A stretch of DNA of 64,000 bases from Streptantibioticus cattleyicolor NRRL 8057 = DSM 46488 (GTDB lineage: Bacteria; Actinomycetota; Actinomycetes; Streptomycetales; Streptomycetaceae), in NCBI RefSeq assembly GCF_000240165.1, contig NC_017586.1:62001-126000 (forward strand), given 5' to 3'. Position numbers and translations under genes: made by a program. The notes under the pieces are model-generated. The model had not been told where the DNA came from, ran no database searches, and was given only the letters and a program-made list of their open reading frames with translations. Of the stretch, positions 5,237-43,587 are shown piece after piece. Every line of letters begins with the position of its first letter. Position 1 is the first letter of the stretch.

Positions 5237-6667
5237 CTACCCGGCCGGCGGCAACTCCCCGGTGCGCGCGACCTCGGCGTACCAGCGCGCGCTCGACTTG
5301 GGGGTGCGCACCTGCGTGGCACGGTCCACCCGCACCAGCCCGAAACGCTTCCCGTAGCCGTGGGACCACTCGAAGTTGTCCAGCAGCGACCACACGAAGT
5401 AGCCCCGGACCGGGGCACCATCGCTGATCGCCCGGTGCGCCGCGGCGAGGTGATCGTGAATGTAGCGGATCCGGTCGGGATCGTGCACCATTCCGGACGC
5501 GTCGGGTTGGTCGTCGAAGGCGGCGCCGTTCTCCGTGATCAGCAGCGGCAGCCCCGGATGGTCGGCGCTCAGCCGCATCAGCAGGTCGTACAGGCCCGAG
5601 GCGTCGATCGCCCAGCCCATGGCGGTGCGCTCCCCGTCCGGCCGCCGGAAGTCCACCCGGTCCGCCCCTGGCCAGGGCGAATGCGTGGTGGAGCCGTGTC
5701 CGTCGGCGCGCTGCGCGGGCCGTCCGTCGGGGGCGGCGGCGACCAGGGTCGGGGTGTAGTAGTTGACGCCGAGCGCGTCGAGCGGCTGATGGACGGCGCG
5801 TTCGTCGCCGTCGCGCACGAAGGACCAGTCGGTGACCGACGCGGTGTCCTCGACGAGGTCCGCCGGGTAGCGGCCGTGCAGCATGGGACCGGTGAAGACG
5901 CGGGTGCCCAGCGCGTCGATGCGCCGGGCGGCGTCCAGGTCGGCCGGGTCGTTCGAGGCGGCGCGCACCAGATGGGGGTTGAGGCAGACCGAGACCCCGG
6001 CGTGCCCCGGCAGCACGGCGCGCAGCGCGCTCACCGCGAGGCCGTGCGCGAGGTTGAGGTGGTGGGCGGCGGCGAGCGCGGCGGCCGGTTCGGTGCGGCC
6101 GGGCGCGTGCACCCCGGAGCCGTAGCCCAGGAAGGCGCTGCACCACGGCTCGTTGAGGGTGGACCACAGCGGCACCCGGTCGCCCAGGGCGGCGCCGACC
6201 AGGGCCGCGTACTCGGCGAAGCGGTACGCGGTGTCCCGGTGCGGCCAGCCGCCGGCGTCCTCCAGCTCCTGCGGCAGGTCCCAGTGGTAGAGGGTGAGCG
6301 CCGGCTGGATGCCGTGCGCCAGCAGGTCGTCGACGAGGGCACGGTAGAAGTCCAGGCCGCGCTGTACGGCGGGGCCGCGCCCGGTGGGCTGCACCCGGGG
6401 CCACGAGACGGAGAACCGGTAGGCGCCCACCCCGAGGCCGGCCATCAGCGCCACGTCCTCGGCCCGGTGGTGGTAGTGGTCCACCGCCTCGTCCCCGGTG
6501 TCGCCGCCGGTCACGGTGGCCGGGCGGTGGCTGAAGGTGTCCCAGATCGACGGGGTGCGGCCGTCCTCGCGCACCGCGCCCTCGATCTGGTAGGCCGAGG
6601 TCGCCGTCCCCCACAGGAATCCGGTGGGGAACCGCAGGGTTCCGGGGTCGCGGGCGGGTTCGGTCAT
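5237..6667 (-). CDS. bglC: GH1 beta-glucosidase BglC
   Basis: Hydrolyses imported cellobiose/cello-oligosaccharides to glucose in the cytoplasm. The 476-aa GH1 protein shows the N-terminal [18 protein letters not shown]-type signature, the acid/base Glu in STLNEPW (about residue 168) and the nucleophile Glu in LLITENG (about residue 375). No signal peptide is present. I chose ATG 6667, preceded by GGGAG. An in-frame ATG at 6751 overlaps the cebG stop (ATGA) and would add 28 low-complexity residues; translational coupling makes it a real alternative. It is last in the operon, exactly as bglC is in characterised Streptomyces ceb loci. Confidence 0.93.
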
Positions 6668-6747
6668 CGATGGCTCCCAATCGTGCGGGGTCGGGCGGCG
6701 GGAGGTACGCGAGGCCGGGCGGCGCGGGGCGGACGGGGTCGCCTGGC

Positions 6748-7617
6748 TCATCCCTTCACCGCCCCCTGCATCACACCGCCGACGATCTGCTTGCCGAAGA
6801 GCGCGAACGCCACCAGCAGCGGCACCGTGGCGATCACCGCGCCGGCCATGATCACCGCCTCGTTGATGTTGTATCCGCCGCCGATGCCGGCCAGCGCCAC
6901 CTGCAACGTCGGGTTGCCGGTCGGGGTGAGGGCGATCAGCGGCCACAGGAAGTCGTTCCACGCCTGGACGAAGGTGAGCATGCCGAGCACCGCCATGGCG
7001 GGACGGGCGGCGGGGAAGACCACGTGCCACACGATGCGCAGCGAGTTGGCGCCGTCGGTGCGGGCGGCCTCCAGCAGTTCGGTGGGGAGCGCCTCGCTCA
7101 GGTACTGGCGCATGAAGAAGACACCGAACGCGGTCACCAGGCCGGGCAGGATCACCGCCTGGAGGTGGTCGGTCCAGTGCAGCCCGGAGATCAGCTGGAA
7201 CAGCGGCAGGACGCTGAGCTGCGGCGGCACCGCGATGGTGGCGACCACCAGCGTCAGCAGCACGTTGCGTCCGGTGAAGCGCAGCTTGGCGAAGGCGAAG
7301 CCGGCGAAGGTGGCGAAGAGCACGGTGGCCGCGGTCACCGCGCCGGCCACGATCACCGAGTTGACCAGCGCCAGGCCGAGGGAATGGGCACCGGGTCCGT
7401 TGTAGTTCCACACCGCCCGCAGGTTGCGCAGCAGGTTGCCGCCGGGCACCAGCGGCGGCGGGCTCTGGGCGATCCGGCTCTGCGAGGTGGAGGCGGCCAC
7501 CACCGCGAAGTACAGGGGGAACAGCGAGGCCACCGCCACCACGGTCAGCACCAGATACGCCAGCGGTCCGCCGTGCCGTTGCCGTCCGGCCCGTACGCCC
7601 AGGCGCAGGCTCGTCAT
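6748..7617 (-). CDS. cebG: cellobiose/cellotriose ABC transporter permease CebG
   Basis: A 289-aa MalG-type inner-membrane permease with about six transmembrane segments. The EAA loop that contacts the ATPase is visible ([23 protein letters not shown], from about residue 187). It pairs with CebF to move cello-oligosaccharides delivered by the lipoprotein CebE. Its ATG overlaps the cebF stop by ATGA, so it is translationally coupled. No ATPase gene is in the operon; in streptomycetes the shared ATPase MsiK, encoded elsewhere, energises this transporter. Confidence 0.92.
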
Positions 7618-29961: not shown

Positions 29962-30615
29962 TCACGCGACGCGGGCGAGGGTGGCGACGGTGGTCGGCAC
30001 GCTCTCCAGCGGGGTGGTCGGGGTGGGCGCGGTGGCCGCGGCGCGCTCCACGGCACGCAGCAACTCCTCCTTGCCGGGCACCCCTTCACGGCGCCAGGGG
30101 CCGATCGCCACGGTGGGCACCATGGTGACCCCGTGCCGTCCGCGAGCCTCGGCGACCGCGTCGAGGTGGCGGCGGGTGTACCGCTCGGAGAGGATGGCCG
30201 CCCGGTACGCCCTCGGGTCGAGCCCCACCTCGGCGGCGAGCCGGGTCAGCTCCACCGGGTCGGAGATGTCCGCCCACTCGTGGAAGTACGCCGTGGAGAC
30301 CCGCTCGGTGTAGGCGGTGCCCACGCCGTGGTCGAGCGCGAACTGGTAGCCCAGGAACGCCATCCGGCTGCGCCGCAACGGGGTTCCGGGCGGGCTCGGC
30401 AACTCCACGCCGACCCGCTCGGCCAGCGGCCTGACCTCCGCCTCCCAGATGCCGCGCGGGTACTCCCCCACCTCCACGGCGCAGTCGGGGTTGACCTCGA
30501 ACGGATGCCACTCCAGGACGACGTCCTGGCGGGGCAGCGCCTCCTGGAGCACCCGGCGGGTGATGAGGCTGAACGGACAGATGTAGTCGAACCAGACGTC
30601 GATGGTGACGGTCAC
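29962..30615 (-). CDS. DsbA-family (FrnE-like) thioredoxin-fold protein
   Basis: A 217-aa cytoplasmic thioredoxin-fold protein with DVWFDYICPFSLITRRVL at residues 5-22: the FrnE/HCCA-isomerase type start, but the active site reads CPFS, so the resolving Cys is replaced by Ser. A later cis-Pro motif (TMVPTVAIG) is near 170. It could be a monothiol oxidoreductase, glutathione-transferase-like isomerase or chaperone. Its GTG start overlaps the stop of the upstream acyltransferase (GTGA), so the two are co-translated, an unusual pairing. Confidence 0.82.
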   Translation of the reverse strand: MTVTIDVWFDYICPFSLITRRVLQEALPRQDVVLEWHPFEVNPDCAVEVGEYPRGIWEAEVRPLAERVGVELPSPPGTPLRRSRMAFLGYQFALDHGVGTAYTERVSTAYFHEWADISDPVELTRLAAEVGLDPRAYRAAILSERYTRRHLDAVAEARGRHGVTMVPTVAIGPWRREGVPGKEELLRAVERAAATAPTPTTPLESVPTTVATLARVA

Positions 30616-31838
30616 GGACTCTCCTCACGACGAGCGGAGGTTGACGTGTGCCACGCGTCCCGGCCGGCCGGGACGCGCGAGGGGCCGGGGAGCGCGGCGG
30701 GGCGCGCCCCGGTGGGTTCGGGGGGCCGGGCCGGGGAGCCGAAACGGCGCAGCACGGGGCGTTCGTAGCCCACGTGCACCAGCCAGGCCAGCAGCAGCGA
30801 CACCACGGCGCTGAGCAGCACCATGCCGACGGCGGCCGGGGCGGACCACGCCCGCCGCTCCCCCAGCGCGATGTGCCCGTAGCGCTGCACGAGCCGGTGG
30901 ACCAGGTAGAACGCGAACGACACCTCGCCCAGCCTCACCATCGCCCGATGGCGGAACGGCGACCGCGTCCCCCGTACGTCGGCCACCGCGGCGGCGCTGA
31001 TCAGCCAGGTGACGGGGACCAGGGTGACGGCCACCATGCCGTACTCGAACGGCGCGTACAGCGCGACGGCGTAGCCGGCCACCAGGGCGGCGCCGGCCGG
31101 CAGCAGCCCCGGGCCGCTCCAGCGTCCGGCGCGCACGATGCGGGCCATCACCATGCCCAGCACGAACTCCAGCGCCCGTACCGGCGGGAAGGCGAAGACG
31201 AACCAGTACCGCTGCTCGGAGACGGCCAGCCACGACATGTGCGGCTGCCCCGGCAGCAGCGCGCCGGCCACCGCCGGTACGCAGCACACCGCCGCCACCA
31301 GGGCGCCCGCCCACCACCACAACCGCTCCGGGCGGACCCGCGCGACCAGCCGGAACAGCAGCGGGAACGCCAGGTAGAACAGGGCCTCGCAACTGAGCGA
31401 CCAGCTCACCGGGTCGACGCTGAGGATCACGTTCACGTCCGGGGTCCAGCTCTGCACCAGCAGCAGGTTGCGCACCGCGCCCGGGGCGGGCAGCCCGGCC
31501 CAGGCCAGCAGGGCGAGGGCGGCCAGGAAGGTGAGCAGATGGGTGGGGTAGATGCGGAAGAACCGCCGGCGCCAGAAGCGGCGCGCGGGGTCGTCCCGGC
31601 GGGCGGACCAGGTCAGCAGGAAGCCGCTGAGCACGAAGAAGTACGAGACACCGACCCACCCGGCCTTGCCGGCGAGCCAGGAGAAGGCGGCACCGGCCGC
31701 GTGGTCGCGGAAGGCGTTCTCGTAGGTGGCGTGGAAGGCGAAGACCAGCGCGGCGGCGACGAACCGCATGCCGGTCAGCGACGGCAGGCGGCCGGGACCG
31801 GGCCGGCCGACGGTGTCGGATGCGGTGGTCGCGGTCAT
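30612..31838 (-). CDS. acyltransferase-3 family membrane protein (second paralogue)
   Basis: A 408-aa Acyl_transf_3 membrane protein paralogous to 22885-24027: RLPSLTGMRFVAAALVFAFH in TM1, SYFFVLSGFLLTW, WSLSCEALFYLAFPLLFRL and RLGEVSFAFYLVHRLVQRYGH occur in the same order. About ten membrane segments and a Pro/Arg-rich cytoplasmic tail are seen. It is coupled by a 4-bp overlap to the DsbA-like gene. The two paralogues bracket the DJ-1/ThDP/AGE operon, suggesting either duplication or two acylations of one exported product. Confidence 0.87.
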   Translation of the reverse strand: MTATTASDTVGRPGPGRLPSLTGMRFVAAALVFAFHATYENAFRDHAAGAAFSWLAGKAGWVGVSYFFVLSGFLLTWSARRDDPARRFWRRRFFRIYPTHLLTFLAALALLAWAGLPAPGAVRNLLLVQSWTPDVNVILSVDPVSWSLSCEALFYLAFPLLFRLVARVRPERLWWWAGALVAAVCCVPAVAGALLPGQPHMSWLAVSEQRYWFVFAFPPVRALEFVLGMVMARIVRAGRWSGPGLLPAGAALVAGYAVALYAPFEYGMVAVTLVPVTWLISAAAVADVRGTRSPFRHRAMVRLGEVSFAFYLVHRLVQRYGHIALGERRAWSAPAAVGMVLLSAVVSLLLAWLVHVGYERPVLRRFGSPARPPEPTGARPAALPGPSRVPAGRDAWHTSTSARREESP

Positions 31839-32015
31839 GGTGGCTCCCGGGAGGAGGGGTTCAGCGAGGCCCGCGTCGGGCGAGAGGTCGGCGCGCCGTC
31901 CGGACCGGGCCCGCGCGGAGCCCGGAAGGGGGAGGTACGGCCCCGGGGTTCGCGGCCCGGACGGCGCGTCGTGGCGGCCCCGTCACCGACGGAAGGCGGC
32001 GGGGCGGGTCGGTGG

Positions 32016-33485
32016 TCATGTCGGCCGGGCCGACCGGGCGGTGAGCCGGGGCACGAGCGCGAGCGCGGCCAGGGCGAGCACGGTGTTGGCGACCAGCGCG
32101 GCGGTGAAGGCATGCCAGTGGGCGGCCGGTGTGGTGCCGGAGCCGAGGGCGGTGAGGAAGACCAGGCCGACCACGGTGACCCCGAGCGACATGCCGATCT
32201 GGGTGGACGTCTCCAGCACGCCCGAAGCGGCGCCGGAGTCGGCCGGCGGCACCCCGTCGAGCGCGGCGCCGAACAGCGGGCTGACGCCCAGCCCCTCGCC
32301 GAAGCCGATCACCACGAGCGCGGGCAGCAGGACCCACCCGGTCGCCCGCTCCCCCGCGGTCACCGAGGTCACCAGGAGCGCCACCGTGCCGGCCGCGTTG
32401 ACCAGGTAGCCGATGGCCGGCACCCGGTGCCCGGCCACCGCCTGGAGCTTCGGTGCCACCAACGAGGCCGCCACGAAGGCGATCGCCAGCGGCGCGAAGG
32501 TCAAACCGGCGGCCAGCGGCAGGTATCCGAGACCACTTTGCAGCTGGAGGGTGAGGACGAAGAAGAGCCCGGCGTTCCCGGCGAAGAAGACCAGGGCGAC
32601 GAGGTTGCCCCCGGCGAAGGCGGGCCGACGCAGCAGCCGGGGGTCGATCAGCGCGTCACCGCCGCGCGCGGCCACGGCGCGTTCGACGGCGAAGAACGCG
32701 GCGAGCGCGGGCACGGAGACCGCGAGGCAGATCCAGCACCACGCGGGCCAGCCGGCCGACCCGCCCTCGATCAGCGGCAACGACAGCGCCAGCAGCGCCA
32801 CCGTGAGCAGCAGCGTGCCGCGCACGTCCAGCCGCGGGCGTCGCCGGCCACCCGGCACCTTGGGCATCACCAGCGCGGCGCCGATCAGCACCAGCAGTCC
32901 CAGCGGCACGTTCAGCAGGAACACCGACCGCCAGGACAGCCCGAACAGGTCGGCCTGCACCAGCAGTCCGCCGAGTACCTGGCCGACGACGGAGGCGACG
33001 CCGATCGTCGCCCCGAACACCGCGAAGGCACGCTCGCGCCACCGGCCGTGGAACGACGTCTGGAGCACCGAGAGAACCTGCGGGTAGAAGAGCGCGGCGC
33101 CGAGCGCCTGCGCGACCCGGAAGCCGATCAGCGCGCCCGCCGAGCCGGCCAGCCCGCAGGCGAGCGAGGCCGCGGTGAACAGCGCCAGCCCGGCCTGGAA
33201 CATCCGCCGGGCGCCGTGGATGTCGCCGAGGCGTCCCCCGGTCACCAGGAAGAGCCCGTAGGCGAGCACGTACCCGGAGACCACGAGTTCGACCTGCGGG
33301 TAGCTCGCGCCCAGCCCGGTGCGCACGGCGGGCACCGCGACGTTGACGATGAACGAGTCCATGACGGCCATGAAGGTGCCGGCCATCACCACCACCAGCA
33401 GCCATCCGTCGCGGGCGGACGGCACCGCCGCGCCGCGGGGCCGCGCGGAGGCCACCGCCGTGGTGGTCACACGGGTTTCCGCCAC
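32016..33485 (-). CDS. MFS drug-efflux-type transporter (DHA2-like, 14 TM)
   Basis: A 489-aa major facilitator with motif FMAVMDSFIVNVAVPAV in TM1, GGRLGDIHGARR (motif A, loop 2-3) and about 14 hydrophobic segments, as in the EmrB/QacA DHA2 group. It probably exports drugs or a metabolite by proton antiport. I chose GTG 33485, which follows GAGGAGAGG; an upstream in-frame start at 33521 would add a non-hydrophobic leader. It is 177 bp downstream of the acyltransferase promoter side and could serve the adjacent cluster, but this is only positional. Confidence 0.9.
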   Translation of the reverse strand: MAETRVTTTAVASARPRGAAVPSARDGWLLVVVMAGTFMAVMDSFIVNVAVPAVRTGLGASYPQVELVVSGYVLAYGLFLVTGGRLGDIHGARRMFQAGLALFTAASLACGLAGSAGALIGFRVAQALGAALFYPQVLSVLQTSFHGRWRERAFAVFGATIGVASVVGQVLGGLLVQADLFGLSWRSVFLLNVPLGLLVLIGAALVMPKVPGGRRRPRLDVRGTLLLTVALLALSLPLIEGGSAGWPAWCWICLAVSVPALAAFFAVERAVAARGGDALIDPRLLRRPAFAGGNLVALVFFAGNAGLFFVLTLQLQSGLGYLPLAAGLTFAPLAIAFVAASLVAPKLQAVAGHRVPAIGYLVNAAGTVALLVTSVTAGERATGWVLLPALVVIGFGEGLGVSPLFGAALDGVPPADSGAASGVLETSTQIGMSLGVTVVGLVFLTALGSGTTPAAHWHAFTAALVANTVLALAALALVPRLTARSARPT

Positions 33486-33789
33486 GAAAGCCTCTCCTCG
33501 CCGGATGTCGTCGAACGGCACGCCGGCGTCGGGCGGTCACGCCAGGTGCGCGGCCGCCCGCCGTGCCCCGCCGTACGCCGTCTCCCGCGCCGCGTCGTGC
33601 CCTTCAACCTTCGCCACAGCCCGGCCCGGGGGACAACTCCGACTTGTGAAAGAAGTCCTTGAGAGGCATGAAGGCATCTGGATCCGGCGGTTGCCGCGCA
33701 CGCTCCCCTACGGCACGACTCGCGTCACCAACCTGCTCGACGCCGTCTCACACTTCACCTGGCGACGTCAGACCGAGGGTGGAAAGTCC
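33486..33789. other. gene-poor stretch upstream of the MFS gene
   Basis: 304 bp. It must contain the MFS promoter and the 3' flank of the gene ending at 33790. A plus-strand frame across about 33640-33790 (reading VLERHEGIWIRRLPRTLPYG) has protein-like composition but no start or stop of its own that makes a gene. I see no clear terminator. Confidence 0.4.
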
Positions 33790-34818
33790 TCACTGGATCA
33801 GCTCCTTGTGGGGGTGGTCCGACGACACCGGGCAGACGTGGATCTGAAGGCTGTAACCGCTTCCCACGGTGATCATCGTCGGGCGGTGGGCCAGGCTGTG
33901 GGCAGGGGCGGTCGACGCAGCGGCGGCCTGGTCCTCGTAAGGGATCCAACTGCCCGTGCTCGCGTCCCATTCGTCCGAGGCGATGGTCAGCAGCGGGGTC
34001 AACTCGGCGTCGCAGACCGCGCAGAGGCGGGGGACCGGGTCGGTGAGGCCCCAGCGGGACCAGCCACCGGTCTTCCAGCCGGGCGCGAGGGACAGTTCGT
34101 CGAGGTAGAACTCCCCGGGCGCGAGCTCGTAGGAGCTGTCCGGGGCCGCGCCGGCCGACTGCCACGTGGCCCAGTCGTCCAGCCGTGCCCGCAACTGCGT
34201 GCTGAGTTCCATGGGGTGGGGGTACTCGGTGACCTGTTCCGGGTCGAGCAGGCACGGCTCGGGCACGTAGTCCTCGGACTGGACCGCTGCCGACTGCGGG
34301 GGCGCCGTGAGGACCTCGGTGACCGTAGCGGCGGACCGCCAGAACAGCGCGGTCCTGGGCCTGGGTTCGGGCAGGTGGTCGAAGGGACACCACAGCACCT
34401 GGAGCAGGTCGGCCCCCTCGGGGACCACCGGCAGGGGGACGTCCCGCACGTACAACTGGGCCACGGGCAGCATGGCGACCGGTCCGTCGGGCCACGGCCG
34501 ATCCGTCCTGAGCTGCTCGTCGGACACCAACTCCTCGGGGCCGAGGCCCGGTTGGCCCGCCGCCGCGGCCTGGATGCGCCGTCGTCGCCGTACATCCGCC
34601 GGCGAGACGGCCGGGTTCACCCCGTCCGGCTCATGCGGGCCCTCGCAGTACGGCCACGGCTCGGCGGCGGGCCACAGCAGCGGCCCACCGACCGAGCTGT
34701 CGTACGGCGACGGCGACCCGGGGCGGGGATGCAGCCGGGTCGCCGTACGTGCCAGCGGGGCCAGTTGGGGCAGGACCGCGGAGACGTCGACCGGCCGCGG
34801 TGGGGTGGTACGGCTCAT
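33790..34818 (-). CDS. hypothetical protein, possibly DUF1963/YwqG-like
   Basis: A 342-aa soluble protein without signal peptide. Weak features suggest the DUF1963/YwqG group: SSVGGPLLWPAAEPWPYC near the N-terminus (the GGxPxxP-W opening), a Gln-Leu segment near 120, and late LCAVCDAELTPLLTIASDE. I am not certain of the family. Start ATG 34818. It lies 30 bp downstream of the secreted lectin-nuclease gene in the same orientation, so they may be co-transcribed. An immunity or binding role is conceivable because YwqG-type genes occur beside toxin loci, but this is inference. Confidence 0.65.
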   Translation of the reverse strand: MSRTTPPRPVDVSAVLPQLAPLARTATRLHPRPGSPSPYDSSVGGPLLWPAAEPWPYCEGPHEPDGVNPAVSPADVRRRRRIQAAAAGQPGLGPEELVSDEQLRTDRPWPDGPVAMLPVAQLYVRDVPLPVVPEGADLLQVLWCPFDHLPEPRPRTALFWRSAATVTEVLTAPPQSAAVQSEDYVPEPCLLDPEQVTEYPHPMELSTQLRARLDDWATWQSAGAAPDSSYELAPGEFYLDELSLAPGWKTGGWSRWGLTDPVPRLCAVCDAELTPLLTIASDEWDASTGSWIPYEDQAAAASTAPAHSLAHRPTMITVGSGYSLQIHVCPVSSDHPHKELIQ

Positions 34819-34848
34819 CCTGGCTCCCGGCGATGTCGGTCGGTGGCG

Positions 34849-36036
34849 TCAGTTACCGAGGTTGAGGCCGCTGCTGGCCTGGGTGTTGGGGATGACGATG
34901 TTGCCGAACAGCTGTTGCCTCGTTCCGTTCGCCCGCTCGACGGTGGCGCTCATGGTGACGCCGTAGGGGATCGTACTGGTGCTGCTGAGGTAGTCGGGTG
35001 TCACCTCGTAGAAGATCGCGTCGTTGCCGCCCAGGCCTTTGATGGCTCGCCTGGTCTCCTGCTCGTACGTCCGCATGCTGGGGGTTCCGGTGTTCATGCC
35101 CACCTGCCAGCAGGGGACGAGGTTGGCCTGTCCACCGTCGCGCACCTGGCCCTTCCCGCCGAGTACGTTGGCGATCAGGTGGCACCGGGCGACGACGGCC
35201 CCCGGCGCGTGTGCCGCGACGAACTTCTGCGCGTCCTGCAGGCCGGTGATGTCCCCGGACGCCACGCTGCCCTCGCCCGGCGGGTTCCGCAGGCACGCCC
35301 GTGCCATGGCCGCCCGGGTCCCGGGCGGTCCGGGCGGGACGGTGGTCTTGTTGCGCTGCGGAACGGGCTGGGTGGTGTTCGTCAGCCAGCCGTGGCCGTC
35401 GTCGACCGCCCCGCCCGGCCTGTGCTCCAGGCAGTCGGCCTGCGGCCCGCGACGGGTTCCGGTCGCCCAGACCGACTGGTAGACCCCGAACCCGAGATCC
35501 TGGTAGATGACCACATTGCCGTCGTTCTGGATGTTGAGCAGGCACCCCACCCCCTGATTCCCGCAGTCCCAGGTGGTGTTGCTGGCCCAGATGGGCTGGT
35601 CCGCACGGTTGTAGACCACCAGGTTCCCGTCGAACTGGAAGGCCAGGTAGGCGCCGCCCGCGTTGGCCTGCGGCGCGGTCCACTCGATGTTCCCGTTGAT
35701 CCGGACCTCGAAGGTGCCCTTGTTCATGTCGACCCAGGTACGGCCGTCCGGCGACGCCCTGCGGCTCCCGTCGCCGAGCCGCCAGCCCCCACTCCACGGA
35801 TTGTGGAAGGGGCCGATGGCCGTACCCGGCGGAAGGCCGAAGACGATGCCGGAAGGTTTCGCCTTCGGCGTGGGACTGCCGGGGCGAGCGACATGGTGGG
35901 CCGGGGCCGGGTGGGACGATCCGGCCGACGCGGTCGGCGCGGTCTGTGCGGCCTGTGCGGCCTGTGCGGGCAGCGTCAGGCCGAGGGTGGCGAGTGCGGT
36001 GACGGCGGTGGCGGCGAGAATGCGCGGTAAATGCAC
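34849..36036 (-). CDS. secreted B-lectin / DNA-RNA non-specific endonuclease fusion
   Basis: A 395-aa exported protein. A signal peptide ends near AQA (about residues 25-30), followed by a Pro/Ala linker. A bulb-type mannose-specific lectin domain (about 75-195) shows the repeated pattern FDGNLVVYN...PIWASNT and NDGNVVIYQ...SVWATGT. The C-terminal domain (about 205-395) resembles the Endonuclea_NS_2 toxin nuclease group: ARCHLIANVLGG near 288 (catalytic His) and ANLVPC near 311 (metal-site Asn). The start is GTG 36036 with AAGGGGG upstream. It may degrade nucleic acids at glycan-bearing surfaces, as a nutrient nuclease or bacteriocin-like toxin. Confidence 0.82.
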   Translation of the reverse strand: MHLPRILAATAVTALATLGLTLPAQAAQAAQTAPTASAGSSHPAPAHHVARPGSPTPKAKPSGIVFGLPPGTAIGPFHNPWSGGWRLGDGSRRASPDGRTWVDMNKGTFEVRINGNIEWTAPQANAGGAYLAFQFDGNLVVYNRADQPIWASNTTWDCGNQGVGCLLNIQNDGNVVIYQDLGFGVYQSVWATGTRRGPQADCLEHRPGGAVDDGHGWLTNTTQPVPQRNKTTVPPGPPGTRAAMARACLRNPPGEGSVASGDITGLQDAQKFVAAHAPGAVVARCHLIANVLGGKGQVRDGGQANLVPCWQVGMNTGTPSMRTYEQETRRAIKGLGGNDAIFYEVTPDYLSSTSTIPYGVTMSATVERANGTRQQLFGNIVIPNTQASSGLNLGN

Positions 36037-36725
36037 GCGTGATCCCCCTTATGGGTCGGCGTGGTGTATTTCCTGGGTCACGGCGGGCTGCCCTTGGCGA
36101 TACGAACGCCATGGCGACGGGTTCCACTCGCCGACGACCGGACTTTCGGTTGTCTGGGAACTCCCAGCGAGAATGCGGTTGTCGGTGCTGGTCCTCGTTC
36201 AGCCGTCGATCTGGTGCTGTCTGCCGACGGTGAAGTGGCGAGGTGGTGATTTCACACCTTCTTCGCATGTTCTGCGCATGCGGCCCCCGGAATTCCGGAC
36301 TTTGCCTTCGGCTACGGCAGCACGATCCTGCACCGGAACAGCTCCGGGCGGTACCCCTACGGCGATTGTTTTCCCGCCGGATCGACAACAGGGTCGGACG
36401 AGTTCCTCTGCTTCTTCGGCAGGCGCGTGGACATCCGAAGCGGCGGCCATACCCACACCGCCCCGGTGACCGCAGAAGTCTGGGACAGCGCTCCGCCTGA
36501 GGATGCGTGAAGGAGATCGCTCCAACGGGCGCCGCGCGTCGGCCGCCGGCGGGAGACGGGTGTCCGTCAGGCATCGGCCGACCTACCGCCTTCCGGGTGA
36601 CCCACGCGCCCGGTGGTACACGGGTGCCCACTCGTGCGGGTGCATCGGCGGTTTGCGCCCTACCCGTCGGCGCGCCCCGGGGGTTGACTGGGCGTCCCTG
36701 TCACCGAGCCGTGGGAGGCAAACCC
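36037..36725. other. 689-bp gene-poor, locally AT-richer region
   Basis: Holds the divergent promoters for the lectin-nuclease and the RiPP-type genes. It is visibly less GC-rich around 36060-36420 than its surroundings. It contains a protein-like gene remnant (36250-36510) and a TTGACT hexamer at 36684-36689 without a matching -10 box. I see no repeats, tRNA or IS ends. Confidence 0.5.
36250..36510 (+). pseudogene. gene remnant without start codon
   Basis: An open frame between stop codons at 36247 and 36508 encodes 86 residues with actinobacterial codon bias in its last 70 codons (nearly all third positions G or C) and protein-like content (FGYGSTILHRNSSGRYPYGD, then EFLCFFGRRVDIRSGGHTHT). 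It has no ATG, GTG or TTG near its beginning. It looks like the 3' end of a gene that lost its 5' part or suffered a frameshift. I do not recognise the family. It could also be chance. Confidence 0.3.
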
Positions 36726-36857
36726 GTGGATGTGATCGTGCGCGCCGGTGGAGGCGACGACGGCGACAAGCTGCCCGGCCAGCCGTGGCCCGGGCCGACG
36801 GAGGACCCCAAGCCTGACGGCAGCGCTCCGGAAGGCGACGGGAAACACCGGAGGTGA
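36726..36857 (+). CDS. 43-aa Asp/Gly/Pro-rich peptide, candidate imiditide-type RiPP precursor
   Basis: A small gene starting GTG 36726 with GGGAGG (36713-36718) 7 nt upstream and stopping in a GTGA overlap with the methyltransferase. The peptide is hydrophilic and acidic in the middle with a basic C-terminus (KHRR). It contains three Asp-Gly pairs (D12-G13, D31-G32, D38-G39), the dipeptide most prone to aspartimide formation after Asp methylation, plus a PGQPWPGP segment. Its coupling to a PIMT-like enzyme with the RiPP-type C-terminal extension makes it a plausible substrate. No leader/core boundary can be drawn and no other RiPP enzyme is adjacent. Confidence 0.65.
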   Translation: MDVIVRAGGGDDGDKLPGQPWPGPTEDPKPDGSAPEGDGKHRR

Positions 36858-38038
36858 CGACCACCGAGGAGCGGCCTGGCCACGCCGGGCTGGGCCGCTA
36901 CCTGCACGAGATCGGCGCACTCACCCCCGAGTGGGCCGAGGCGTTCCACGCGGTGCCGAGGTCGGCGTTCCTGCCGGACCTGATGTGGCCGCACGACATG
37001 GAAACCGGCCGCTCCTCCCCCGTCGACCGGCGGAAGGACCCCGAAGCGTGGGGCCGGTACGCGCACGAAAACTGTCCGATCGTCACCCAGTGGGACGACG
37101 GCGCCCACGACGGGATCGAGCCCGGCACGGTGCCGACGAGTTCGGCGAGCGCACCGTCGGTGGTGTTCCGGATGCTGGCCGACCTCGATGTGCAGCCGGG
37201 CCACAAGGTTCTCGAACTCGGTGCCGGGACGGGCTACAACGCCGGCCTGCTCGCCTACCGGGCGGGTGCGGGCAACGTCGTCACCGTCGATGTGGACCCG
37301 GCCGTGACGGCGCGTGCCCGGCGGGCCCTGGACGGTCTCGGCCTTGATGTCGAGGTGGTCACCGGTGACGGGCTGGCCGGCTTCCCGGACCGGGCCCCGT
37401 TCGACCGGACGATCGCCACGTTCGGGCTGCGCTCGCTGCCGGGAGCGTGGGTGGAGCAGACCCGGCCGGGGGGCGTGATCGTCGCGCCGTGGGGGACGAA
37501 CTTCGCCCACCACGACGCGGTGGCCCGGCTGGTGGTGGCCGGGGACGGCAGGTCGGCGTCGGGACGGTTCAGGCGGCTGGTGGAGTTCATGAAAGCCCGC
37601 TCGCAGCGGCTCGAGTTCGCGGGCCACAGCGCGTACGTGCCGGACGACGTACCCGGCAGCGCGGACGAGTCGTACACCGAGGTGCCGGCCGGGGACTTCC
37701 CCGCGCACCTGGACGCTCCGGCCCGGTTCGCGGTCGGACTGCGTGTCCGCGATGTCTGGCATGGCATGTCGGCTTCCGGGGATCGGCGGCTGGCCTGGTT
37801 CTACGGCCTCACCGACACGTCATGGGCGGTGGTCGCGTTCCGCGACGGGGAGAGGAGGCATCCGGTGTACCAGTCGGGGCCGCGCCGCCTCTGGGACGAG
37901 GTCGAGGCCGCGTGGCGCTGGTGGTGTGCGGTCGGCCGGCCGGGGGTGGACGGGTTCGGGCTGACGATGCGGCTGGACGGTGGCCACGAGGTGTGGCTGG
38001 AGACCGGGGACCGGCGGGTGCGGGTGCGGCATGAGTGA
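36854..38038 (+). CDS. PIMT-like O-methyltransferase of the RiPP-associated type
   Basis: A 394-aa SAM-dependent methyltransferase related to protein-L-isoaspartate O-methyltransferases. SAM motif I is VLELGAGTGYNAG (about residues 119-131), followed by VVTVDVD and GDGLAGFPDRAPFDR. It is much longer than housekeeping PIMT (about 210-230 aa): a C-terminal extension ends with LWDEVEAAWRWW, GRPGVDGFGLTM and VWLE, the motif set I associate with methyltransferases of lasso, graspetide, FxLD-lanthipeptide and imiditide clusters. It probably methylates Asp of the coupled 43-aa peptide, which can close to aspartimide. GTG 36854 overlaps the peptide stop. Confidence 0.85.
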   Translation: MTTTEERPGHAGLGRYLHEIGALTPEWAEAFHAVPRSAFLPDLMWPHDMETGRSSPVDRRKDPEAWGRYAHENCPIVTQWDDGAHDGIEPGTVPTSSASAPSVVFRMLADLDVQPGHKVLELGAGTGYNAGLLAYRAGAGNVVTVDVDPAVTARARRALDGLGLDVEVVTGDGLAGFPDRAPFDRTIATFGLRSLPGAWVEQTRPGGVIVAPWGTNFAHHDAVARLVVAGDGRSASGRFRRLVEFMKARSQRLEFAGHSAYVPDDVPGSADESYTEVPAGDFPAHLDAPARFAVGLRVRDVWHGMSASGDRRLAWFYGLTDTSWAVVAFRDGERRHPVYQSGPRRLWDEVEAAWRWWCAVGRPGVDGFGLTMRLDGGHEVWLETGDRRVRVRHE

Positions 38039-38494
38039 TCCGCTGATCGGGCGCTCAGCAGGATAGGCGGGTGGCCTTCGACTGCCCGCCTCCAACACGT
38101 GGACGATCCGGCCGACGGCTGACGCGGCGAGGCCCGGACCCGACCGGGTGAAACGGCGATACCCCGCCGACTGCGGCTCGTCATCCACGGCCCGGCCACC
38201 CTCCTCCCCTGGTCCGCCGCCGCGATCGCCGCCCTCGGCCTGGTGCTGCACCTGCTGACCACCCGGGGCGCCACGGCCGCCAGCACGGAGGCGTCCCGGC
38301 TCGCCCAGAAGGTGTGAGGCGGCCCTTCGAGCCTGCGCGGACGCAACGCGCGGTACGCGGCGGGTCCGCCGAGCCGGAGGCTTGCGTACCGGCGGGCGGC
38401 CGGCGGGCGCGCACACGCCTAGGCGGAGCGGATCGGGGTGGTGTTCACTGAACGCGCCGTGCCCGTCGGATGTCGTCGGATGGGGGGAAGGTCC
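38039..38494. other. 456-bp intergenic region
   Basis: No convincing gene. A plus-strand frame 38123-38317 reads like a short membrane segment (WSAAAIAALGLVLHLL) ending QKV, but has no usable start codon. The rest presumably contains the kinase promoter. A G-rich ribosome site (GGGGGGAAGG) ends just before 38495. Confidence 0.4.
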
Positions 38495-40810
38495 GTGGGG
38501 CGACCGAGGCGAGAACTGGACCCGCAGGCCGGTCCGTTGGAGGCGTTCTGCCATGACCTGGAGGAGTTGCGGGCCGCGGCCGGGCTGACGTTGCGCAGGC
38601 TGGAGGAGCGCTCCGGGTATTCGAAGGCGGCGCTGTCGAAGGCGACGTCGGCGGTGTCGTTGCCCTCGTTGGACCTGACGATGGCGTACGTCGGGGCGTG
38701 CGGCGGGGATCAGCGGGAGTGGGAGAGCCGGTGGACGGCGTTGCGGGAGGTGCTGAACGCGAGCCGTCCGGAGTTGCTGACCGATCCGTCCGGCCCCGCC
38801 GGGACGGACGCGGCGGACGCGTTGCGGGTCGTCCGGGAGACCGCCGGGGCCGGTCGCCACGGGGAGGCCGCCGCCATGGCCGCCGCCTGGGAGGAGCACG
38901 CGCGGCGCAGTCACGGCGACGGCAGCGCACAGGTAGCCCACTGGGCCGGGATCCGCGCCGATCTCGCCCGGATGGCCGGGGACATGGCGGGTGCCACCGG
39001 GCTGTGGATCGCCGCCGCCCGTGCCCGCCTGGCCGGCGGACCTGCCGACGACCCCGCGCTGCTCGCCGCGGCCCGCAGCGCCCACTGGTGCTGGCAGCAG
39101 ATCGCCGACCCCGACCGTGCCCGGCAGGCCGGGGTCCAACTCCTCGATCTGCTGCGGTCGTTACCCGCGTTGGACCCGCGGCACGTCGCGGCGGCCGAGT
39201 ACCGGCTCGCCGCGCTGGGGCCGGGGGCCACCGCATCGCCGCGGCCGGATCCGGCGGGCACCCGGTGGCCGGGGTCGGCGGATCCCGTCTCGGCGCCACC
39301 GGGGACCGCACCGTCCGGCGGCCGGGTTCCCCGCCGCGCCGTCGCCCCTCTGCTGTCCGGCGACCCGGACCGCGTCGGCCCGTTCCGGCTGCTCGGCCGG
39401 CTCGGATCGGGCGCGATGGGGCAGGTCTTCCTCGGGGTCTCCAGGGCGGGGCGGCCGGTGGCGGTGAAGGTGGTCCGTTCCGAGCTGGCCGAGGACGCCA
39501 CCTTCCGCCGCCGGTTCGCCGCCGAGGTCGCCGCCGCCCGCACGGTGCAGGGTCCCTACACCCCGGCGGTGGTGGACGCCGATCCGGACGCCGAGCGGCC
39601 GTGGATGGCGACCACCTGCATCCCCGGGCCCTCGCTGGGTGACGTGGTGTCGTCCGGCGGCCCGCTGCCCGCCCCCGTGGTCCGCGCGCTGGCGGCCGGC
39701 ATCGCGGAGGCGCTGACCGCCATCCACGCCGCCGGGGTGCTCCACCGGGACCTCAAGCCCGGCAACGTCCTGCTCGACCGCGACGGGCCCAAGGTGATCG
39801 ACTTCGGCATCGCGCACGCCGCCGACCACACCCGGCTCACCCGTACCGGGGCCCAGCTCGGCACGGTTCCGTACATGGCACCGGAGCAGGCGGCGGGGCG
39901 GCCGGTCGGACCGGCCACCGACGTCTTCGCACTCGGATCGCTCCTGGCCTACGCGGCCACCGGCATCCCGCCGTTCGGGGAGAGCGGCACCGGCGAGGTG
40001 CTCTACCGCATCGTGCACTCCGAGCCCGACCCGGAGGCGCTGGAGTGCGCGGATCCGGCGCTGCGCGAGCTGATCGGGGCGTGCCTGGCCAAGGACCCGG
40101 CGCGCCGGCCGACGCCCGGGAGGATCGTGGCCGCCTGCGCGCAGGCGGCCGGCGCCGAGCCGTGGCCGCCGCCCGCGCTCGCCGCCCGGCTCGCCGAGCA
40201 CGACGCGGAGTTGACCACGTTGCTGGCCCGGCAGCCGGAACGCCGCCGGATGCGTCCGACGCGTCCGGCGCTCCGGTTCAGCCTGGTGCCGCTGGTCCTC
40301 GCCACCGGGATCGTGGTGGCCGTGATGCTGGTCGGCTCGCGCGGCGGCACCACGGGCCACGACACCGGGACGCCACCGGCCACCTCCCGCTCCGCGGCAC
40401 CGGTGCCGAAGCCGGCCCGCGACGGCCAGGACCCGTACACCGGGGCGCACTGCGGACCGGACCAGCAGGAGGCCGACCGGCGCGCGATGACCTGGCCGGA
40501 CGGCTCCCCCTACGGCTACCTGGTGCTCTTCCACTCCCCCGGCTGCGCGGCGAGTTGGGGTTACGTCTACGGCCCCAACTCCCACAAGTGGTCGGTGCAC
40601 ATCACCGCCCACCGGCAGGGCGACGGGGCCACCGCGCCCTCCGCCTTCTCCGGCGACCTGCGCCCCAACTCCTGGGGCAACGTGCTCTCCACCCGCACCG
40701 GCTGCGTGTGGATCGAGGGGTGGGTCAGCGAGGAGAAGGCGCAGTCCCGGCACACCGTCACCGACTGCGTCCAGGACGGCGGCCCGGTCACGGTCACCGG
40801 GTCGCCGTGA
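38495..40810 (+). CDS. HTH (XRE) - Ser/Thr protein kinase - TM - DUF2690 protein
   Basis: A 771-aa multidomain protein. The N-terminal XRE-type HTH (about 15-75, LRRLEERSGYSKAALSKATS) is followed by a helical TPR-like region (about 100-255) and a Pro-rich linker. A PknB-type kinase (about 294-555) has GSGAMGQV (P loop), VAVKVV (Lys), LHRDLKPGN (catalytic Asp near 418), IDFG and APEQAAG. One membrane helix (about 594-614) leads to an extracellular Cys-containing C-terminal domain resembling DUF2690 (DPYxTGAHC, LFHSPGCAASWG). GTG 38495 is preceded by a G-rich site; ATG 38480 is an alternative. It probably senses an external signal; the intracellular HTH is unusual for such a kinase. Confidence 0.85.
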   Translation: MGRPRRELDPQAGPLEAFCHDLEELRAAAGLTLRRLEERSGYSKAALSKATSAVSLPSLDLTMAYVGACGGDQREWESRWTALREVLNASRPELLTDPSGPAGTDAADALRVVRETAGAGRHGEAAAMAAAWEEHARRSHGDGSAQVAHWAGIRADLARMAGDMAGATGLWIAAARARLAGGPADDPALLAAARSAHWCWQQIADPDRARQAGVQLLDLLRSLPALDPRHVAAAEYRLAALGPGATASPRPDPAGTRWPGSADPVSAPPGTAPSGGRVPRRAVAPLLSGDPDRVGPFRLLGRLGSGAMGQVFLGVSRAGRPVAVKVVRSELAEDATFRRRFAAEVAAARTVQGPYTPAVVDADPDAERPWMATTCIPGPSLGDVVSSGGPLPAPVVRALAAGIAEALTAIHAAGVLHRDLKPGNVLLDRDGPKVIDFGIAHAADHTRLTRTGAQLGTVPYMAPEQAAGRPVGPATDVFALGSLLAYAATGIPPFGESGTGEVLYRIVHSEPDPEALECADPALRELIGACLAKDPARRPTPGRIVAACAQAAGAEPWPPPALAARLAEHDAELTTLLARQPERRRMRPTRPALRFSLVPLVLATGIVVAVMLVGSRGGTTGHDTGTPPATSRSAAPVPKPARDGQDPYTGAHCGPDQQEADRRAMTWPDGSPYGYLVLFHSPGCAASWGYVYGPNSHKWSVHITAHRQGDGATAPSAFSGDLRPNSWGNVLSTRTGCVWIEGWVSEEKAQSRHTVTDCVQDGGPVTVTGSP

Positions 40811-40823
40811 ACCGGCGGCCGGC

Positions 40824-41999
40824 TCAGGCGATGCCGAGCAGGTGGTCCATGGCGAGCTGGTCGAGGCGTTCGAAGGCCATCCCGCGTTCCGCGGCGGCGG
40901 CCACGTCGAACTCCTCGTAGGCGGATCGGTCGGCGAGCAGCGTCGTCACCGTCTCGCCGGGGGCCAGGGTGGGCCGGGCCAGGTCGTCCAGCCGGGCGGC
41001 GCGCAGCGCCTCGGCAACCCGGGGGTCGGCGCGGAAGGCGGCGGACCTGGCCTTCAGCGCGAGGTAGTTGCGCATGCAGCCGGCCGCGGAGTCCCACACC
41101 CCGTCGGGGTCCTCGGTGCGCGGCGGCTTGAAGTCGAAGTGGCGCGAGCCGCGGTACCCGGCGGATTCCAACAGGTCGACCAGCCAGAACGCCTGGCGGA
41201 GGTCGCCCGCGCCGAAACGCAGGTCCTGGTCGTACTTGACGCCCGACTGGCCGTTGAGGTCGATGTGGAAGAGCTTGCCGGACCACAGCGCCTGCGCGAC
41301 GCCGTGGGTGACGTTGAGCCCGGCCATCTGCTCGTGGCCCACCTCGGGGTTGACGCCGACGAGTTCGGGGTGCTCCAGCCGTTCGATGAAGGCCAGGGCG
41401 TGGCCGACGGTGGGCAGCAGGATGTCGCCGCGCGGTTCGTTGGGCTTGGGCTCGACGGCGAAGCGCAGCGGGTAGCGCTGTTCGTGGACGTAGGCGGTGA
41501 GCAGGTCGAAGGCTTCCTTGAGGCGGTCGAGGGCGGCGGGTACGTCCTTGGCGGCGCCCGATTCGGCGCCCTCCCGGCCGCCCCAGGCGACGTAGACCTC
41601 GGCGCCGAGTTCGACGGCCAGGTCGATGTTGCGCAGGGTCTTGCGCAGCGCGAAGCGGCGCACGTCGCGGTCGTTGGCGGTGAAGGCGCCGTCCTTGAAG
41701 ACCGGGTGGGTGAACAGGTTGGTGGTGGCCATCGGCACCTTGAGCCCGGTGGCGTCCAGTGCCTGCCGGAAGCGCTTGAGGATGGCCTCGCGGCGGCTGT
41801 CGGTGGCGTCGAAGCCGAAGAGGTCGTCGTCGTGGAAGGTGACCCCGTGGGCGCCGAGGGCGGCGAGGCGGTGGACGGCCTCGACCGGGTCGAGCGGGGG
41901 CCGGGTGGCGTCGCCGAACGGGTCGCGGCCGGCCCAGCCGACGGTCCACAGGCCGAAGGAGAACCGGTCCTCGGGGGTGGGGGTCAGTTCGTCGGTCAC
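40824..41999 (-). CDS. xylA: xylose isomerase XylA
   Basis: A 391-aa TIM-barrel enzyme that interconverts D-xylose and D-xylulose (and glucose/fructose). Actinobacterial class I motifs are visible: [11 protein letters not shown] at the start, [11 protein letters not shown] (catalytic His), [20 protein letters not shown] (Glu/Lys metal and proton-shuttle residues), [10 protein letters not shown] and LFHIDLNGQ with metal-binding Asp/His. The start GTG 41999 has AGGGAG upstream and gives the normal Streptomyces length (about 388 aa). It is divergent from xylB across a 127-bp region with an AT-rich inverted repeat. Confidence 0.96.
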
Positions 42000-42042
42000 C
42001 GTGTCTCCCTGGGGTGTGCGAGGGGCGGGTCCGGCCACGCCC

Positions 42043-42071
42043 TATTGGTTAAGCCGGAAAACAAACTAATA
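42043..42071. promoter_or_regulatory. putative XylR operator in the xylA-xylB divergent promoter
   Basis: An AT-rich island in GC-rich DNA. TATTGGTT (42043-42050) faces AACTAATA (42064-42071), 7 of 8 positions complementary, with a 13-bp spacer. The A/T-rich arms resemble operators of ROK-type xylose repressors, and a ROK regulator gene ends this locus. Confidence 0.65.
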
Positions 42072-42126
42072 TCGCTGCGCGGCGCCGGGAACCCCCCGGC
42101 GCCGGTGAACCGCCGGGGAGGCCGGG

Positions 42127-43587
42127 TTGGCTGCACAGCAGGACGCGCGAGGAGAACGGGTCGTCATCGGCGTGGACAGCTCCACGCAGGCCACCAAGGC
42201 GGTGGCCGTGGGCGTGGACACCGGCACGGTTCTGGGCACCGGGCGCCACGCGCACTCCGTCACCTCCGGGGCGGGCCGGGAGAGCGACCCGGAGCAGTGG
42301 TGGGCCGCGCTGACCGGGGCGGTCGCCGCCACCGGCCACGCCGGCCGGGCCGAGGCGGTCGCCGTCGCCGGGCAGCAGCACGGCCTGGTGGCGCTCGGCG
42401 CGGACGGCCGGCCGGTGCGCCCCGCGCTGCTGTGGAACGACGTGCGTTCCGCGCCGCAGGCCGCCGCGCTGGTCGAACGGTTCGGCGCCGAGGAGCTGGC
42501 GGAGCGCACCGGCAGCGTGCCCACCGCCGCGTTCACCATCGCCAAGTGGGCCTGGCTGCGGGAGAACGAGCCGGCCGCCGCCGACCGGGTGGCCGCCGTC
42601 CGCCTGCCGCACGACTACCTCACCGAGCAGCTGACCGGAGCCGCCACCACCGACCGCGGCGACGTCTCCGGCACCGGCTGGTGGACCCCGCACGGCTACG
42701 ACGGTGAACTCCTCGGCCACGTCGGGCTGTCGGCGGCGGCGCTGCCGGAGGTCGTCGCGCCGGGCACGGCGGCCGGACGGGTACGTGGCGGTGACGGACC
42801 GCTGCGGCCCGGCACCCTGGTCGCGGCCGGCACCGGGGACAACATGGCCGCGGCGCTGGGCCTCGGGCTGCGCCCCGGATCGCCGGTGGTCTCGCTGGGC
42901 ACCTCGGGCACCGTGTTCGCGGTCACCCGGGGCAGGCCGCGGGACCCCTCCGGGGTGGTCGCCGGGTTCGCCGACGCGCTCGGCGGCTGGCTGCCACTGG
43001 CCTGCACCCTCAACTGCACGCTGGCGGTGGACCGGTTCGCCGCGTTGCTCGGCCGCGACCGGGAGGCCGTGGAGCCCGGCGGCACGGCCGTGGTGCTGCC
43101 GTTCCTGGACGGGGAGCGCACGCCCAACCTGCCGTACGCCTCGGGGCTGTTGCACGGGCTGCGCCACGACACCACGCCCGGCCAGGTGCTCCAGGCGGCC
43201 TACGACGGCGCCGCGTACTCGCTGCTGGCCGCGGTGGACGACGTGTTGCGGGCCGGTGGTGAGGAGAACGATCCGCTGGCGCCGCTGCTGCTGGTGGGCG
43301 GCGGTGCGCGGGGGACGGCGTGGCGGGAGACGATGCGGCGGCTGTCCGGGCGGCCCGTTCAGGTGCCGGCCGCCGAGGAGCTGGTGGCGCTGGGCGCGGC
43401 GGCGCAGGCGGCGGGGGTGCTGACCGGGGAGGCCGCCGACGAGGTGGCCCGCCGCTGGGGCACCGGCCGGCCCGCCGTGGTGCTCGATCCGCGGCCGGCC
43501 GACACCGAGGCGCTGGCCCGGATCGGCGACACGCTGCGGCGTTCCCACGACCTGATGGCCCGTCAGCTACCCGCCGCCGAAGGGTGA
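42127..43587 (+). CDS. xylB: xylulokinase XylB
   Basis: A 486-aa FGGY-family kinase that phosphorylates D-xylulose to xylulose 5-phosphate for the pentose phosphate pathway. It shows VIGVDSSTQATKAV (phosphate 1 loop), AVAVAGQQHGLVAL (sugar-binding), WNDVRS, TGDNMAAALGLGL (catalytic Asp region) and LLVGGGARGTAWRETMRRL near the C-terminus. It starts with TTG 42127, six bases after GGGGAGG. Its stop overlaps the ROK regulator start. Confidence 0.95.
   Translation: MAAQQDARGERVVIGVDSSTQATKAVAVGVDTGTVLGTGRHAHSVTSGAGRESDPEQWWAALTGAVAATGHAGRAEAVAVAGQQHGLVALGADGRPVRPALLWNDVRSAPQAAALVERFGAEELAERTGSVPTAAFTIAKWAWLRENEPAAADRVAAVRLPHDYLTEQLTGAATTDRGDVSGTGWWTPHGYDGELLGHVGLSAAALPEVVAPGTAAGRVRGGDGPLRPGTLVAAGTGDNMAAALGLGLRPGSPVVSLGTSGTVFAVTRGRPRDPSGVVAGFADALGGWLPLACTLNCTLAVDRFAALLGRDREAVEPGGTAVVLPFLDGERTPNLPYASGLLHGLRHDTTPGQVLQAAYDGAAYSLLAAVDDVLRAGGEENDPLAPLLLVGGGARGTAWRETMRRLSGRPVQVPAAEELVALGAAAQAAGVLTGEAADEVARRWGTGRPAVVLDPRPADTEALARIGDTLRRSHDLMARQLPAAEG

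What the first reader, a model, noticed from the sequence alone, without database searches (positions are those of the whole stretch)
36726..38038. Candidate imiditide-type RiPP locus: 43-aa Asp-Gly peptide coupled to a PIMT-like methyltransferase
The sequence shows a small peptide gene with its own GGGAGG site, three Asp-Gly pairs and a GTGA overlap with a 394-aa PIMT homologue. That enzyme is far longer than housekeeping PIMT and ends in WRWW / GRPxxxGFGLT / VWLE motifs. Established knowledge: C-terminally extended PIMT homologues modify lasso, graspetide, lanthipeptide and imiditide precursors, forming aspartimide from Asp methyl ester; imiditides need only precursor plus methyltransferase. 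Inference: this pair is such a two-gene system. The acidic centre and basic tail are unlike typical leader/core designs.
Basis: partly seen in the sequence, partly recalled or inferred. Interest (0 to 1): 0.85.

Follow-up and report, generated by a model that had tools for sequence, protein, structure and literature searches.

The report
Two-gene aspartimide peptide (type I pamtide)
An actinobacterium carries a tiny gene for a 43-residue peptide that runs straight into the gene of an enzyme which most likely alters one conserved aspartate in that peptide; it is one more member of a recently described natural-product class (pamtides, or imiditides), not a new kind of system.

Summary
In detail: a 43-aa Gly/Pro/Asp-rich ORF (36726-36857) with a GGGAGG site overlaps by GTGA a 394-aa PIMT homologue (36854-38038). 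It is not a chance ORF. Enzyme relatives carry a homologous peptide in the same place (consensus GDxLPGQPWxPPxPPSPDGxxPxGDGKHRK). Its conserved part shows dN<dS in 127 of 127 usable pairs. All 17 genome-wide profile hits at E<=1e-4 abut an enzyme homologue; 12 of the 17 helped build the profile. D31-G32 is invariant in 17 of 17 aligned peptides; D12 is Asp in 4, D38 in 12, D14 in 16. D31 is therefore the predicted site.

No lanthipeptide, lasso or graspetide enzyme was recognised among eight flanking genes. As an internal contrast, the same genome holds a complete graspetide locus whose methyltransferase passes the NCBIfam cut-off that this enzyme fails. Length, composition, basic tail, C-terminal extension and the WXXXGXP motif match published type I pamtides/imiditides. 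New member of a known kind. The chemistry was not tested here, and the biological role is unknown.

The parts
36713..36718 (+). GGGAGG ribosome-binding site of the peptide gene, 7 nt before the GTG
   Evidence: sequence
36726..36857 (+). 43-aa precursor peptide gene (GTG start, TGA stop included)
   Evidence: conserved in relatives; dN<dS in 127 of 127 usable pairs of 136; hit by the profile at 9.8e-15, though it is one of the 17 rows of that profile
36816..36818 (+). codon of D31, predicted site of methyl ester, aspartimide and isoaspartate (Asp31-Gly32)
   Evidence: D31 and G32 invariant in 17 of 17 rows of A2; Asp in 27 of 28 rows of A1
36843..36854 (+). basic tail K-H-R-R of the peptide, predicted contact to the enzyme
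   Evidence: a basic tail of the HRK kind ends most rows of A1 and A2 (L058 is an exception); published SpaA needs its last five residues (PMC10787088 and PMC13001092)
36854..36857 (+). GTGA overlap of the peptide's stop and the enzyme's start (inferred translational coupling)
   Evidence: sequence
36854..38038 (+). 394-aa PIMT-like (PAMT) aspartyl O-methyltransferase gene
   Evidence: Pfam PCMT 1.1e-23; TIGR04188 284 bits, below its cut-off of 380; Foldseek rank 1 is the two-domain T. maritima PIMT 1dl5
37139..37498 (+). part coding for the catalytic PCMT domain, residues 96-215
37601..38035 (+). part coding for the C-terminal extension, about residues 250-394 (boundary approximate)
   Evidence: outside the Pfam match; low-confidence model with strand/helix order b-a-b-b-b-b-a in 274-360
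37922..37942 (+). WXXXGXP motif (W357-C-A-V-G-R-P363)
   Evidence: sequence; motif described in PMC13001092; exact in 5 of 7 rows of A3

Best explanation
This is a two-gene type I pamtide/imiditide locus. The peptide (36726-36857) is the substrate of the PIMT-like methyltransferase encoded directly behind it (36854-38038). Shown here: both genes exist, overlap, are conserved as a pair, and the peptide is under purifying selection with an invariant Asp-Gly. Inferred from published relatives (SpaA/SpaM, NmaA/NmaM): the enzyme's C-terminal domain holds the peptide through its charged ends, above all the basic tail; the catalytic domain methylates the side chain of D31 with S-adenosylmethionine; the amide of Gly32 attacks the ester, giving an aspartimide (-18 Da), which opens slowly to isoaspartate or aspartate. 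No cyclase or other primary modifying enzyme is needed. Removal of the N-terminal part, export and biological role are unknown.
For: Peptide homologues directly upstream of enzyme homologues. D31-G32 invariant in 17 of 17, dN<dS in 127 of 127 usable pairs, third-codon-position differences 0.49 against 0.23 and 0.23 in residues 14-43. Genome-wide profile search: 17 of 17 hits at E<=1e-4 abut an enzyme homologue, five of them not rows of the profile. Peptide type follows the enzyme tree: 17 of the 20 rows of the window's clade (SH-aLRT 94) have the LPGQPW type. No RiPP enzyme recognised in eight flanking genes. Same genome: two further peptide-enzyme pairs and a complete graspetide locus as contrast. 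Fold of T. maritima PIMT. Match to published class features.
Against: No chemistry was tested. The rows of A1 and A2 were picked by eye from ORFs beside the enzyme, so the invariance of D31 is partly by choice. D14 is also nearly invariant (16 of 17). L034 and L066 show no peptide, L003 and L010 look frame-shifted, and L060 has a peptide without Asp at the D31 position. In L003 the PDG reads PGG. The structure model has mean pLDDT 63 and the C-terminal part is poor.
Confidence: 0.87

Rival explanations
1. The peptide is not the substrate but a small partner or regulator of the enzyme (for example an inhibitor or activator made in fixed ratio through the overlap), and the enzyme acts on other proteins.
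For: Sequence data show linkage and conservation, not catalysis; the same data would arise for a partner protein.
Against: The most conserved element is an Asp-Gly pair, the known target of this enzyme family, and the related SpaA and NmaA peptides are modified by their neighbours.
Confidence: 0.07
2. The enzyme is a tailoring methyltransferase of a graspetide, lanthipeptide or lasso peptide whose main enzymes lie elsewhere.
For: Best NCBIfam match is TIGR04188, the methyltransferase of ATP-grasp peptide systems (284 bits).
Against: Below the cut-off of 380, while the same genome's true graspetide copy scores 448 beside an ATP-grasp enzyme (394 bits, cut-off 350) and a TIGR04186 precursor (73 bits, cut-off 25). 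The window peptide matches no NCBIfam or Pfam family. None of eight flanking genes is such an enzyme; the 790-aa neighbour matches LanL and LanKC models far below cut-off and over its kinase part only. The peptide has no Cys, one Ser and one Thr.
Confidence: 0.03
3. A protein-repair PIMT with a chance ORF in front.
For: It has the PIMT catalytic domain.
Against: Conserved peptide under selection; scores below all PIMT equivalog cut-offs; long C-terminal extension.
Confidence: 0.02

Closest known systems
Type I pamtides / imiditides: SpaA-SpaM (Streptomyces sparsogenes), NmaA-NmaM (Nonomuraea maritima)
   Same: Two-gene layout; precursor of about 45 aa rich in Gly, Pro and Asp; conserved Asp near Pro/Gly; charged ends with a basic tail; PIMT homologue with extra C-terminal domain and WXXXGXP.
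   Different: The sequences of SpaA and NmaA were not available to compare. NmaA has His after the modified Asp; here it is Gly. Whether the LPGQPW / SPDG / GDGKHRK subgroup is one of the published conservation patterns could not be seen (a supplementary figure).
Type II pamtides / cysimiditides (FcaA-FcaM)
   Same: Two genes, same enzyme family.
   Different: Those precursors have a four-cysteine zinc motif; this peptide has no cysteine.
Graspetide system (TIGR04186 precursor, TIGR04187 ATP-grasp, TIGR04188 methyltransferase), present in the same genome
   Same: Related methyltransferase.
   Different: Needs an ATP-grasp enzyme and a different precursor; the window locus has neither.
Two-domain PIMT of Thermotoga maritima (1dl5)
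   Same: Best Foldseek match, aligned along almost the whole model.
   Different: Not paired with a small peptide as far as recalled; identity 21%.

Membership tests
Type I pamtide / imiditide | small precursor gene next to a PIMT homologue, pair conserved | tested here: met
Type I pamtide / imiditide | precursor about 45 aa, rich in Gly, Pro, Asp | tested here: met
   43 aa; Gly 9, Pro 7, Asp 7 (sequence) against the values in PMC10787088
[quoted passage not shown]
   P30-D31-G32 invariant in 17 of 17 rows of A2; Asp in 27 of 28 rows of A1
Type I pamtide / imiditide | basic C-terminal tail used by the enzyme | tested here: inconclusive
   tail present and conserved; its use by the enzyme is not testable here
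Type I pamtide / imiditide | PIMT homologue with extra C-terminal domain and WXXXGXP | tested here: met
   394 aa, PCMT 96-215; WCAVGRP; exact in 5 of 7 rows
Type I pamtide / imiditide | no other primary RiPP-modifying enzyme | tested here: met
   eight flanking genes scanned; genes further away in the window were not scanned
Type I pamtide / imiditide | aspartimide or isoaspartate formed on the linear peptide | not testable with these tools
   needs mass spectrometry
Type II pamtide / cysimiditide | two CXXCXGXG motifs in the precursor | tested here: not met
   no Cys in the peptide
Graspetide methyltransferase (TIGR04188) | score over the curated cut-off, ATP-grasp partner | tested here: not met
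   284 of 380 bits; no ATP-grasp in the flanking genes scanned
Housekeeping PIMT | score over a PIMT equivalog cut-off | tested here: not met
   94.6 of 188, 83.1 of 282, 77.3 of 159 bits, 72.5 of 359

The most novel reading that the evidence does not exclude
The modified peptide is not an antibiotic but an internal or released signal that feeds into the XRE-DUF5753 / DUF397 regulators of Streptomyces-type bacteria: such regulators are about ten times denser around these peptide-enzyme pairs than in the genomes at large (12 PF19054 matches in 8 of 20 loci against 1.1 expected), although the window locus itself has none within its flanks.
Probability: 0.06. Interest if true: 0.65.

Novelty: new member of a known kind. 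Interest (0 to 1): 0.3.

Why it matters
Pamtides/imiditides are the only RiPP class in which aspartimide or isoaspartate formation is the defining step, and only a few have been tested (the review names two type I and three type II). This locus adds a clearly delimited subgroup, with a conserved LPGQPW box, an SPDG target and a GDGKHRK tail, in which the predicted site and tail can be tested directly. The genome holds three such pairs beside a graspetide locus with a related enzyme, so one strain would let the substrate choice of four related methyltransferases be compared.

Tried and rejected
Considered and rejected: chance ORF, graspetide or lanthipeptide tailoring enzyme, cysimiditide (no Cys). 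The 790-aa kinase gene downstream (38438-40810) is not a class III/IV lanthionine synthetase: only its kinase part matches, far below cut-off.

Led nowhere: promoter and terminator scan of 36037-38437 found nothing, as expected for a G+C-rich actinobacterium; no Rfam match. The structure model is weak (mean pLDDT 63, seven sequences), so no claim is made on the peptide-binding site. The paper that named imiditides is not held, so NmaA and SpaA sequences were not compared. Literature searches on pamtide, imiditide and aspartyl O-methyltransferase showed no paper on this locus, but most subscription papers are not in that library.

Limits of counts: rows of A1 (28) and A2 (17) were chosen by eye among ORFs next to the enzyme; left out were L003 and L010 (look frame-shifted), L034 and L066 (no peptide seen), and from A2 also L058 and the Pro-rich types. 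The label script used loose patterns: for L056 and L086 it took a wrong frame, and some of the 13 rows labelled 'none' do have a candidate (L077; L080 and L075 look like cysimiditides). In one search only the first 17 candidates of each genome were scored. The 12 weaker hits (E 0.0016-0.0094) were not checked for neighbours; of three weak hits one abuts the enzyme (G007:C32) and two do not.

Full report
Observation. The region reads as described. A GGGAGG site (36713-36718) precedes a GTG at 36726; the frame ends with TGA at 36855-36857 and gives 43 residues, MDVIVRAGGGDDGDKLPGQPWPGPTEDPKPDGSAPEGDGKHRR. The methyltransferase starts at GTG 36854, overlapping as GTGA, and ends at 38038. An in-frame GTG at 36507 would give 116 aa, but relatives give peptides of 27-51 aa from their likely starts, so 36726 is preferred. 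Long ORFs on the other strand are usual in such G+C-rich DNA and were not pursued.

The enzyme. Pfam finds PCMT at residues 96-215. NCBIfam's best model is TIGR04188 at 284 bits, under its cut-off of 380, and all PIMT equivalog models are under theirs. The PDB relatives by sequence are PIMTs. The predicted model is only fair (mean pLDDT 63.1, C-terminal part poor), yet Foldseek ranks the two-domain PIMT of Thermotoga maritima, 1dl5, first over 392 alignment columns, and VIA-align gives it Z 20.8 over 209 residues (single-domain PIMTs score up to 22.9). In residues 274-360 the model has strand-helix-four strands-helix, the order that PMC10787088 reports for the extra domain of these enzymes. 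The WXXXGXP motif named in PMC13001092 is WCAVGRP here, and is exact in 5 of the 7 rows of A3.

The peptide is real and travels with the enzyme. Enzyme homologues are common: 39 of 41 relatives and 262 of 394 genomes of the class have a match at E<=0.001, most of them more distant family members. Upstream of close homologues lies a peptide with the same C-terminal half. Seventeen of these, window included, align with M1, G18, W21, P28, P30, D31, G32, P35, G37 and G39 invariant. In a wider set of 28, Asp is kept at the D31 column in 27 (counted from the printed alignment; L060 lacks it). Over residues 14-43 the mean pairwise differences at codon positions 1, 2 and 3 are 0.226, 0.229 and 0.487, and dN<dS in all 127 of 136 pairs with usable dS (median dN 0.284, dS 0.93). 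Synonymous sites are close to saturated in many pairs, so the values are rough, but their direction is uniform.

Genome-wide test. A profile of the 17 peptides was run against 41 relatives and 394 genomes of the class. At E<=1e-4 there are 17 distinct hits, and each lies directly upstream of an enzyme homologue listed. Twelve are rows of the profile itself; five are not (G024, G022, G014:C2:530720, G021, G200), so for them the result is a test. Weaker hits (E 0.0016-0.0094) are mostly unrelated or unchecked. No peptide of this type was found away from an enzyme at E<=1e-4.

Enzyme tree. In a tree of 62 enzymes the window lies in a clade of 20 (SH-aLRT 94) of which 17 have the LPGQPW-type peptide, two (L004, L008) a Pro-rich one that also ends in SPDG/SPDS...GHR, and one (L034) none. 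Labels cluster on the tree far more than shuffled ones (15 changes against a mean of 34, as low in 0 of 200).

Exceptions. L034 and L066 have no visible peptide; L003 and L010 look frame-shifted, and in L003 the target reads PGG; L060 has a short peptide without Asp at this place; L058 lacks the basic tail.

Which aspartate. In A2, position 12 is Asp in 4 of 17 and position 38 in 12 of 17; D31 is 17 of 17 and is always followed by Gly. D14 is Asp in 16 of 17 but is followed by Lys here and is not kept in the Pro-rich types. D31 is the prediction; D14 is the control to test.

Surroundings. Of eight flanking genes scanned (29962-43587), none is a RiPP enzyme: DsbA-like, acyltransferase, MFS transporter, an unassigned protein, a secreted protein with an endonuclease domain and weak lectin-bacteriocin similarity, an HTH-Ser/Thr kinase, xylose isomerase and xylulokinase. 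Across 27 loci there is no constant neighbour.

Other copies in this genome. One search lists nine enzyme matches in the genome's row, of which five places were looked at. C1:1606175 has an LPGQPW peptide (58% enzyme identity) and C2:3421374 a MGEHEK...SDGKHRK peptide. C2:3415358 is a complete graspetide locus: TIGR04186 precursor 72.8 bits (cut-off 25), TIGR04187 ATP-grasp 394 (350), TIGR04188 methyltransferase 448 (380). C2:633964 shows no clear peptide. The pamtide-type copies score 246-327 on TIGR04188. This is a good internal contrast: same genome, related enzymes, different partners.

Mechanism. Shown: pair, overlap, selection, invariant Asp-Gly. From published work on SpaA/SpaM and NmaA/NmaM (PMC10787088 parts 1-4 of 5; PMC13001092 part 1, section 10 and found passages): methylation of one Asp in a linear peptide, spontaneous aspartimide, hydrolysis to isoaspartate/aspartate, recognition by charge with the C-terminal region essential. 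Inferred: the same here, at D31, with the KHRR tail docking on the enzyme. Unknown: proteolysis, export and role.

Verdict. The reading as an imiditide/type I pamtide is supported; it is a new member of a known kind, of which 1414 type I examples had been listed by 2023. Whether this very pair is in that list could not be seen.

A lead beyond the question. XRE-type regulators with DUF5753 (PF19054) are dense near these loci: 12 matches in 8 of 20 stretches (L087-L106, 347,547 bases) against about 1.1 expected from 400 matches in about 123.6 Mb. The 20 stretches are not independent (several share a genome), regional clustering was not controlled, and the window has none in its flanks. XRE-DUF397 pairs regulate antibiotic production in Streptomyces (PMC10364602, PMC6262351: search listing and start of abstract only). 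This is the basis of the novel reading, at low odds.

Noticed in passing
L090, L091, L093, L097, L098, L099, L101, L105: XRE regulators with DUF5753 (12 PF19054 matches in 8 of 20 stretches, about 1.1 expected) and small DUF397 proteins cluster near pamtide-type loci.
   Followed up: partly
L122 1090-3432 (own genome C2:3414089-3416431): Complete graspetide locus: TIGR04186 precursor, TIGR04187 ATP-grasp enzyme, TIGR04188 methyltransferase.
   Followed up: partly
L038 2024-3309 and L039 about 6190-7415 (own genome): Two more peptide-methyltransferase pairs of pamtide type in the same genome.
   Followed up: partly
L080 and L075, upstream of the methyltransferase: Peptides with CxxCxGxG-like motifs, apparently type II pamtides (cysimiditides).
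   Followed up: no
L009, L043, L067, L068, L069: A separate peptide type (GGGGSDEGGNxxDG) on one enzyme branch (SH-aLRT 93), without the Pro-rich SPDG core.
   Followed up: no
L003 and L010: Peptide genes that look frame-shifted before an apparently intact enzyme reading frame (L010's match is partial); could be decay or sequencing error.
   Followed up: no
window 34849-36036 (-): Secreted protein with a DNA/RNA non-specific endonuclease domain (PF13930) and weak similarity to lectin-like bacteriocins (NF033557, 46 bits of 275): possible antibacterial toxin.
   Followed up: no
window 38438-40810 (+): HTH (HTH_31, below cut-off) fused to a Ser/Thr protein kinase, 400 bases downstream of the methyltransferase.
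   Followed up: no
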